14,794 nucleotides of DNA, from positions 374,272 to 389,065 of the forward strand of contig CP011806.1 of assembly GCA_001664505.1 (NCBI GenBank), read 5' to 3'. A program made the translations under genes and the position numbers. The stretch's first letter is position 1. Each line of letters opens with the position of its first letter. The notes below the pieces were generated by a model. That model searched no databases, had not been told where the DNA came from, and was given only the letters and a program-made list of their open reading frames with translations. Shown here piece after piece: positions 3,826-6,800 of this stretch. The DNA is from Acidobacteria bacterium Mor1 (GTDB lineage: Bacteria; Acidobacteriota; Polarisedimenticolia; Polarisedimenticolales; Polarisedimenticolaceae).

Positions 3826-6800
3826 ATGAGTGATGCCCTCAAGCGCCACAGTGCCAAGCGGTTCGAATTCTCCAAGATTCAAACCGCGATACCGATTCCG
3901 AACCTCATCGAGGTTCAGAAGCGGTCGTACGAGCGCTTCCTCCAGATGTATACGGCCCCTGCCGACCGGGAACAAGCGGGTTTGCAGGCGGTCTTCAAGT
4001 CGATCTTCCCGATCCAGGATTTCCGCCAGACCTGCTCCCTGGAGTTCGTCGACTACACCATCGGCACCTGGGAAAGTAAGTGCGGTGAGCTGACCGGTAT
4101 CGAGAATTACCGGGGCTCCTGCGAGCACTGCCCGAACCGGACCGTCTCCCGCGGCTTCGCCAAGCCGGGCGAGGAAGAGTGTTCGTCGTGCGGTCAGATC
4201 GTCGCCAAGGAGGTCCCGGTCTCCTCGTGCGGCGAGGAAGTGCGCCTCCAGCACAAGTACTCCGTCGGCGAGTGCCAGGAGCGCGGCCACACCTTCACGG
4301 TGCCGCTGAAGGTCACGATCCAGCTCGTGGTGTACGACAAGGATCCGGACACCGATGTCCGTAGCATCCGCGACATCAAGGAGCAGGAGGTCTACTTCGG
4401 CGAGATCCCGATGCTCACCGAGAACGGGACCTTCATCGTCAACGGTACCGAGCGGGTCATCGTCAGCCAGCTCCACCGTTCGCCCGGCGTGTTCTTCCAG
4501 TCCGACGCCACCAAGAGCACGGTGACCGCCAAGGTCATCCCGTACCGTGGCTCCTGGGTCGAGTTCGAGTACGACCAGAAGAACCTGCTGTACGTTCGGA
4601 TCGACCGTAAGCGCAAGATCCTGGCGACCACCTTCCTGCGCGCCCTAGGCTACGAGGACGACGCTTCGGTGGTGCGGGCCTTCTACGATCCCTCCGAGGT
4701 CAAGACCTCCGATGCCTCGGCTCTGGAAGGGGGCTACAACGTCTCCGACGTGATCGACACCGAGACCGGCGAGGTGCTGCTCGACGCGGCGACCGCGCTG
4801 ACTCCCGAGCACGGCGCGGAGCTGGCCGCCAAGGGCGTCAAGAAGATAGAGGTGGTCTACCCCGAGCAGGAAGACGTCGGCGTGATCATGATGGACACGC
4901 TGGCAAAGGATCCGGTCAAGTCGCAGAACGATGCGCTGATCGAGATCTACCGCCGCCTGCGCCCCGGAGACCCGCCGACGGTCGAGTCCTCGAAGAACCT
5001 GTTCAACAGCATGTTCTTCGACCCGACCCGCTACGACTTCTCCCGGGTCGGCCGGCTGAAGTTCAACACCAAGCTCTACGGCGTATCCCGGGACACCTGG
5101 CCCGACGTCGTCTCCGAGCGCTGGGACAAGGACGAGGACCGCACCCCGACGAAGGAAGACTTCATCGAGGTCCTGTCCTACATGCTGAAGCTGCGCCGGG
5201 GTATCGGCGACATCGACGACATCGACCACCTGGGCAACCGGCGCGTCCGCAGCGTCGGTGAGCTCCTGGAAAACCAGTTCCGCATCGGCCTCGTGCGCAT
5301 GGAGCGTGCGATCAAGGAAAAGATGTCGGTCTACCAGGAGATGACCACGGCGATGCCCCACGACCTGATCAACGCCAAGCCCGTGATGGCCGCGATTCAG
5401 GAGTTCTTCGGCTCGAGCCAGCTCTCCCAGTTCATGGACCAGACGAACCCGCTCTCCGAGGTGACCCACAAGCGGCGCCTCTCGGCCCTCGGGCCGGGCG
5501 GTCTGTCCCGCGAGCGGGCCGGCTTCGAGGTTCGCGACGTCCATCCCACGCACTACGGCCGCATCTGCCCGATTGAAACGCCGGAAGGTCCGAACATCGG
5601 CCTGATCTCGTCGTTGTCCTGCTACTCGCGGATCAACGACTACGGCTTCATCGAGTCCCCGTACCGCAAGGTCGAGGACGGCCAGGTCATCGACTACGTC
5701 AGCGTGGTGCGGATCGGAGACAGCGACTACACGCTGGATCAGGTGATCCGCGAGGACGAGTTCCGAGCAGCCCGGGCCAAGTTCGAGAAGGCGGGCAAGG
5801 AGCCGCCCGAGGCGGAGCCCCATTCGTTCTACCTGACGGCGTGGGAAGAGGACCGCTCGGTTATCGCCCAGGCCAACGCCCAGCTGGACGAGGGCAACAA
5901 GTTCGCCAACGAACGGGTCAACGCCCGTCGCACCGGTGAGTTCAAGCTGGTGCCCCAGGAAGACGTCGGCTACATCGACGTCTCGCCGAAGCAGCTGGTC
6001 TCGGTCGCCGCGTCGTTGATCCCGTTCCTCGAGAACGACGACGCCAACCGCGCCCTGATGGGTTCGAACATGCAGCGCCAGGCGGTGCCGCTGGTTCAGC
6101 CGCAGTCGCCCTACGTCGGCACCGGCATGGAGAGCATCACGGCCAAGGACTCCGGTTCGGTCGTGACCTGCAAGCGCGCCGGCGTCGTCGACCTGGTCGA
6201 CTCCCAGCGCATCATCGTGCGGGTCGGTGCCGAGGGCCGCGAGGACTTCGGCGCGGATATCTACTCGCTGATCAAGTTCCGGCGCTCGAACCAGAACACC
6301 TGCATGAACCAGCGCCCGGTTGTGCAGAAGGGCCAGCGCGTCGAGAAGGGGGACGTCCTCGCCGACGGCCCCTGTACCGAGGACGGCGAACTGGCGCTGG
6401 GTCGCAACATCCTGGTCGCCTTCATGCCCTGGCGCGGCTACAACTTCGAGGACGCGATTCTCGTGTCCGAGAAGCTGGTCCGGCAGGACTCCTACACCTC
6501 GATCCACATCGAGGAGTTCGAGGTCGAGGCCCGGGACACCAAGCTGGGCCCCGAGGAGATCACCCGGGACATCCCCAACGTCTCCGAGGAGTTCCTCAAG
6601 GACCTCGATGAGTCCGGCGTCATCCGCATCGGCGCCCACGTCAAACCCGGCGACATCATCGTCGGCAAGGTCACGCCGAAGGGCGAGACCCAGCTGACCC
6701 CCGAGGAGAAGCTCCTTCGGGCGATCTTCGGCGACAAGTCCGGCGACGTGCGCGATGCGTCGCTGACCACGCCGCCGGGAATCGACGGCACGATCGTCGA

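What the first reader, a model, noticed from the sequence alone, without database searches (positions are those of the whole stretch)
4081..4260. Zinc-ribbon-like insert in the RpoB protrusion
Between LEFVDYTIG and the conserved ECQERG, where E. coli RpoB has only a few residues, this protein carries about 60 extra residues. They hold six cysteines spaced C-x12-C-x2-C-x16-C-x2-C-x12-C (C86, C99, C102, C119, C122, C135). C99/C102/C119/C122 form a plausible four-cysteine zinc site; C86 and C135 sit in CG turns that look like the surviving halves of two further CxxC knuckles. A metal-binding module on the upstream-facing part of beta could contact promoter DNA, sigma or a lineage-specific factor. 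I have a vague memory of similar inserts in some Acidobacteriota-type RpoB proteins, so it may be a lineage trait rather than unique.
Basis: partly seen in the sequence, partly recalled or inferred. Interest (0 to 1): 0.75.

Follow-up and report, generated by a model that had tools for sequence, protein, structure and literature searches.

The report
Zinc-ribbon insert in bacterial RNA polymerase
Nearly all Acidobacteriota sampled carry an extra metal-binding (very probably zinc) module of about 60 residues in the beta subunit of their RNA polymerase; this genome has a worn copy that keeps one of its two predicted metal sites, and what the module does is unknown.

Summary
RpoB (GTG start at 3814) has a ~62-residue insert between TIG84 and the conserved KY..GECQERG, about E. 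coli beta 76/77. The insert is a trait of the window's phylum, inferred to be Acidobacteriota. Of 209 insert-bearing RpoB sequences, 191 have eight Cys in four knuckles, almost always spaced C-x-C-x12-CxxC-x15-CxxC-x10-CxxC. It is absent from every non-acidobacterial RpoB aligned over the site. Losses fall in knuckles 1+4 (window, one whole family, two other genomes) or 2+3 (one genome). This points to nested sites: an outer site (1+4), dead here, and an inner ribbon (2+3), intact here. AlphaFold models the insert well, and knuckles 2-3 superpose on the LysW zinc ribbon. The insert was deleted at least four times, so it is dispensable over evolution. Knuckles 1-2 also resemble the beta' zinc-binding domain more than any other protein in the genome, so capture from neighbouring rpoC is possible but unproven. 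Metal binding and function are inferred. I found no description of it in the papers held.

The parts
3814..8139 (+). rpoB (1441 aa, GTG start), host protein of the insert
   Evidence: PF00562 match at G000:C1:380440-382143; PF04563
4066..4254 (+). the insert (RpoB residues ~85-147), at about E. coli beta 76/77 in the protrusion (beta1)
   Evidence: alignments; E. coli register (query 61-78 = E. coli beta 79-96)
4075..4083 (+). knuckle K1 remnant S88-K89-C90 (C-x-C in most insert-bearing rows; first Cys lost here)
4120..4131 (+). knuckle K2, C103-x2-C106 (intact)
4180..4191 (+). knuckle K3, C123-x2-C126 (intact); with K2 forms inferred metal site B
4219..4230 (+). knuckle K4 remnant V136-S-S-C139 (first Cys deleted here; CxxC in relatives)
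8362..8460 (+). beta' (RpoC) zinc-binding domain, best non-self match in the genome to the insert profile (K1-K2 half); possible source or analogue
   Evidence: (E 8.5e-4)

Best explanation
An ancestral, phylum-wide zinc module built into the beta protrusion of Acidobacteriota RNA polymerase. It is a four-knuckle insert at the end of a strand of the beta1 (protrusion) domain, with two nested metal sites: K1+K4 at the base (site A) and K2+K3 at the tip (site B, a LysW/TFIIB-type zinc ribbon). In this genome site A has lost two ligands and the insert has diverged fast, while site B is complete, so the protein probably binds one zinc there. Shown: the sequence, its conservation, its distribution, and the pattern of Cys losses and deletions. 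Supported by a model only: the ribbon fold of K2+K3. Inferred: zinc as the metal (about 0.9), nested pairing (about 0.75), and function. Most likely function (about 0.4): an accessory surface on the upstream-facing protrusion that contacts upstream duplex DNA, sigma or a lineage-specific factor through its tip and the conserved basic residues K89 and R100. It tunes rather than enables transcription, since several lineages have deleted it.
For: Eight Cys intact in 159 of 166 insert-bearing rows of the first sample and 191 of 209 after targeted sampling; one spacing in 187 of 191. Losses confined to K1+K4 (window; L011; L018; all 14 sequences of family f42, at least 7 genera) or K2+K3 (L017); none in K1+K2 or K3+K4. 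AlphaFold on L052: block-mean pLDDT 86-90 over most of the insert; K2-K3 (residues 37-73) on LysW 5eio_C, Foldseek prob 0.89, rmsd 1.8 over 31 columns, VIA-align Z 2.3, rmsd 2.3 over 37. All 32 members scanned match Pfam DZR weakly, most match further zinc-ribbon models. Insert deletion on at least four tree branches. Basic residue at 89 and R/K at 100 are kept even where site A is lost. The protrusion anchors Mfd's RID and lies beside upstream duplex DNA (PMC7864632).
Against: No direct evidence of metal binding. K1-K2 alone has the spacing and residues of the beta' ZBD, where those four Cys bind one zinc (established knowledge), which would favour sequential pairing. K4's second Cys is kept in every site-A-broken sequence, which nested pairing does not explain. 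Only about four independent co-loss events exist. In f42 36 of 62 insert columns are invariant, so retention of the four inner Cys there is not by itself remarkable. VIA Z-scores are low (at most 3.3). The in-context model was poor (pLDDT 59.7), so the insert's orientation relative to DNA is unknown. No functional partner was identified.
Confidence: 0.75

Rival explanations
1. Sequential pairing: K1+K2 form one zinc site like the beta' ZBD (C-x-C-x12-C-x2-C) and K3+K4 form a second, RanBP/eL40-like knuckle pair. In this genome both sites would then be broken and no full metal site would remain.
For: K1-K2 matches beta' ZBD by hhalign (prob 87.5; prob 95) above 150 shuffles that keep the Cys. 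rpoC is the best non-self match genome-wide in the own genome, and the best or near-best match in each of 7 other genomes tested is a ~1,400-residue frame aligned at K1-K2 (rpoC confirmed by reading one locus). K3-K4 matches eL40, RanBP and DZR1 by profile.
Against: No co-loss in K1+K2 or K3+K4; all four events are K1+K4 or K2+K3. The inner four Cys are complete in every site-A-broken lineage. The AlphaFold model places K2-K3 on LysW.
Confidence: 0.2
2. A neutral ornament: a folded but functionless insertion kept by inertia, gained once and slowly lost.
For: Deleted on at least four branches; strong divergence in the window lineage (37-43% identity to same-order relatives in the insert against 84-90% in the flanks).
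Against: Eight Cys plus W86, G95, R100, V143 and L145 are near-invariant across a phylum, and the inner Cys persist after the outer site is lost. Conservation of the fold alone could also follow from avoiding misfolding in an essential enzyme.
Confidence: 0.25
3. A docking site or steric regulator for a known protrusion-binding factor (CarD, Mfd RID).
For: Mfd's RID binds the same protrusion domain (PMC7864632); the window genome has both a CarD-like ORF and an Mfd-sized ORF with PF02559 matches.
Against: Nine of nine insert-lacking or shrunken genomes have a CarD-sized match, and three insert-bearing genomes (G072, G065, G045) lack one, so presence does not track CarD.
Confidence: 0.08
4. A redox or Fe-S sensor rather than a structural zinc site.
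For: Eight Cys could carry Fe-S or disulfides; a C90-C139 disulfide is conceivable in the window protein (inference only).
Against: CxxC knuckles with zinc-ribbon spacing and zinc-ribbon profile matches; no test of redox behaviour was possible.
Confidence: 0.05

Closest known systems
Lineage-specific insertions of bacterial RNAP beta (beta-i4/SI1, beta-i9/SI2, beta-i11, beta-i12)
   Same: A lineage-restricted extra module at a fixed surface position of beta; accessory, as deletions occur in nature.
   Different: Different site (protrusion, E. coli beta 76/77) and a Cys-rich zinc-ribbon sequence. In passages read by keyword, PMC2939025 describes beta-i4 (beta2 domain), beta-i9 (flap), beta-i11 and beta-i12, and PMC11515920 describes BEAN and HABAS; the word zinc was not found in the text of PMC11515920 or in PMC2939025.
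LysW / TFIIB-type zinc ribbon
   Same: K2+K3 spacing CxxC-x15/16-CxxC and the superposition of the model on LysW.
   Different: Inserted in RNAP beta and flanked by an outer pair of knuckles.
beta' zinc-binding domain (ZBD)
   Same: K1-K2: W-E-C-x-C-G-x11-C-x2-C-G (12 residues between the second and third Cys), with more similarity than Cys and Gly alone give.
   Different: Sits in beta; pairing evidence points elsewhere; a reverse search with the narrow ZBD profile found the rpoB insert in only one of 11 insert-bearing genomes (G045).
Pfam DZR (PF12773) double zinc ribbon
   Same: Four knuckles, all 32 scanned members match at E up to 1.
   Different: The first member scores below the curated cut-off (24.5 against 27.3 bits).

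Membership tests
Lineage-specific insertion of RNAP beta | Extra segment absent from the common bacterial core, restricted to a lineage, at a fixed site | tested here: met
   present in most same-phylum genomes sampled, absent from all non-acidobacterial RpoB aligned over the site (some outgroup loci begin downstream of it and do not count)
Zinc ribbon (LysW/TFIIB type) | Two CxxC knuckles about 15-17 residues apart forming one metal site | tested here: met
   spacing; modelled fold (by sequence and model only)
Zinc ribbon (LysW/TFIIB type) | Bound zinc | not testable with these tools
   needs protein
Double zinc ribbon (PF12773) | Score above the curated cut-off | tested here: not met
   24.5 against 27.3 bits for the first member; 19.6 for the L052 N-terminus; the window protein had no match up to E 1
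beta' ZBD | C-x-C-x12-C-x2-C with the flanking W/Y-E and G residues | tested here: met
   met in relatives, only partly in the window copy (S88, P107)
beta' ZBD | These four Cys bind one zinc | tested here: inconclusive
   co-loss pattern points to K1+K4 and K2+K3
BEAN/HABAS insertions | Sequence or structural similarity to those domains | not tested
   no profile of them was at hand

The most novel reading that the evidence does not exclude
The N-terminal half of the insert (K1-K2) is a copy of the beta' zinc-binding domain captured from the adjacent rpoC gene in an ancestor of the Acidobacteriota, fused to a second zinc-knuckle pair. The polymerase then carried related zinc modules on both large subunits, with the copy in beta later rewired to nested metal pairing.
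Probability: 0.2. Interest if true: 0.7.

Novelty: new variant of a known kind. Interest (0 to 1): 0.5.

Why it matters
Acidobacteriota are widespread (general knowledge), yet no solved RNA polymerase with this insert was found in the PDB sequence searches. A near-universal zinc module on the upstream-facing protrusion means that transcription models based on E. coli, Thermus or Mycobacterium miss a part there. Natural lineages that broke one site, broke the other, shrank it or deleted it form a ready-made series for asking what such modules do and how metal sites decay.

Tried and rejected
Frameshift or assembly artefact: rejected, since the frame and insert are conserved in relatives. Phage origin: tblastn of the insert against phages gave only E of 2 or worse. 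A PDB structure with the insert: none; RNAP beta chains matched only in the flank. CarD dependence: no correlation. Reciprocal search with beta' ZBD: only G045 (E 0.0018), so homology was left unproven. The in-context AlphaFold model was too poor to place the insert against DNA. VIA-align listed no RNAP beta' chain among matches of the insert model; Foldseek listed beta' chains only at probability 0.07 or less. Literature: five searches found no description; the comparative survey of insertions cited by PMC2939025 (its reference 3, Lane et al.) was not looked up in the library and may list this insert.

Full report
What is there. RpoB of the window (3814-8139, 1441 aa) carries a segment of about 62 residues between [10 protein letters not shown]84 and [12 protein letters not shown] query-to-PDB alignment puts the site at E. 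coli beta 76/77 (query 61-78 = E. coli 79-96), in the beta1 or protrusion domain. Six Cys fall in it (C90, C103, C106, C123, C126, C139), against 10 Cys in the other 1379 residues (binomial P about 6e-6).

Distribution. The named loci nearest to the window's RpoB are labelled Acidobacteria or are acidobacterial groups by name (57-63% identity in the best segment), and all ten of them carry the insert. Full-length matches to the RpoB N-terminus were found in most same-phylum genomes, and the insert was read in 166 of the 175 rows aligned. None of the proteobacterial, myxobacterial or other loci aligned over the site has it. The sampling of other phyla is narrow, so restriction to this phylum holds only as far as sampled.

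Anatomy. Relatives have four knuckles and eight Cys: K1 C-x-C-G, then K2, K3 and K4 as CxxC(G). Spacing is C-x1-C-x12-C-x2-C-x15-C-x2-C-x10-C-x2-C in 187 of 191 intact sequences. The eight Cys are complete in 159 of 166 insert-bearing rows of the first sample and in 191 of 209 after sampling further around two groups, which adds near-duplicates. W86, G95, R100, V143 and L145 are near-invariant, and position 89 is K or R in most.

The window copy. K1 reads S-K-C (first Cys to Ser) and K4 reads V-S-S-C (first Cys deleted). K2 and K3 are complete. Its insert is only 37-43% identical to same-order relatives, against 84-90% in the flanks; relatives among themselves show 72% and 86%. The insert has diverged fast in this lineage while keeping the four inner Cys.

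Which Cys belong together. Losses form a pattern. The window, L011 and L018 lost Cys in K1 and K4. All 14 sequences of family f42 (at least seven genera) lost both K1 Cys and the first of K4. L017 lost both K2 Cys and one of K3. No sequence lost K1+K2 or K3+K4 only. With four events and three possible pairings the chance of such agreement is about 0.04 (my arithmetic), so this is good but not final evidence for nested sites A (K1+K4) and B (K2+K3). Geometry agrees: both ends of the insert leave the same place on the protrusion, so K1 and K4 are expected to lie near each other (inference). Two points do not fit neatly. The second Cys of K4 survives in every site-A-broken sequence. In f42 the insert as a whole stays constrained (36 of 62 columns invariant), so survival of the inner Cys there is weak evidence by itself. 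In f42 the invariant S-R-S and I-D-E-V-C suggest that a salt bridge replaced the metal (inference).

Fold. AlphaFold2 on L052's insert with ten relatives gave block-mean pLDDT of 86-90 over most of the insert. Foldseek's best credible match is LysW (5eio_C, prob 0.89, rmsd 1.8 over 31 columns, E 0.7); VIA-align places model residues 37-73, i.e. K2-K3, on LysW at Z 2.3, rmsd 2.3 over 37 residues. All Z-scores are low, as usual for tiny domains. A 629-residue in-context model was too poor to use.

Resemblance to the beta' ZBD. Profile comparison of the insert with beta' ZBD gives prob 87.5 (score 33.5) and 95 with a curated pair. Of 150 shuffles each, the best scored 20.8 when Cys columns were kept and 29.4 when Cys and following Gly were kept. 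In the own genome rpoC is the best match after RpoB (E 8.5e-4). In each of seven other genomes the best or near-best match is a 1394-1458-residue frame aligned at K1-K2; one of these was read and is rpoC, the rest are inferred from size and alignment. In insert-bearing relatives a second match of that kind is common. The reverse search found rpoB in only one of 11 insert-bearing genomes. Capture from rpoC is therefore a live but unproven idea, and the co-loss pattern argues against ZBD-like pairing today.

Loss. Complete deletion occurred in f13 with f35, and in f58; Cys-poor shrunken loops occur in G145 and G214, whose relatives have full inserts. That makes at least four independent losses. 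The module is dispensable over evolution.

Function. Shown: none. The protrusion is where Mfd's RID docks, beside upstream duplex DNA (PMC7864632). CarD presence does not track the insert: three insert-bearing genomes have no CarD-sized match and all nine insert-lacking or shrunken ones have one. The most likely role is an accessory contact to upstream DNA, sigma or a lineage factor; a neutral ornament remains a serious rival.

Known or new. Two open papers on RNAP insertions, read by keyword passages only, describe other insertions (PMC2939025; PMC11515920). The word 'zinc' does not occur in PMC2939025 (count 0) or in the text of PMC11515920. Five literature searches found no description. The survey by Lane et al. 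that PMC2939025 cites as its reference 3 was not looked up in the library, so it may already list this insert. I file it as a new variant of a known kind.

Noticed in passing
window 16-522 and 14130-14792: Two EF-Tu (tuf) fragments flank the window: a C-terminal part before secE and a second N-terminal part after rpsG; the order rpsL-rpsG-tuf has no fusA between, and no rpmG or tRNA was seen between tuf and secE (604-804).
   Followed up: partly
window 4645-11019, minus strand: A 2124-aa open frame runs antisense to rpoB-rpoC; taken to be a by-product of GC-rich codon usage, not tested.
   Followed up: no
L197, L199, L231, L279-L281, L283-L290 (family f42): Whole family carries S-R-S and I-D-E-V-C in place of the outer zinc site, a possible natural replacement of a metal site by a salt bridge.
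   Followed up: partly
L243 (G214) and L245 (G145): Shrunken loops at the insert site with no knuckle left, apparent intermediates between full insert and deletion.
   Followed up: partly
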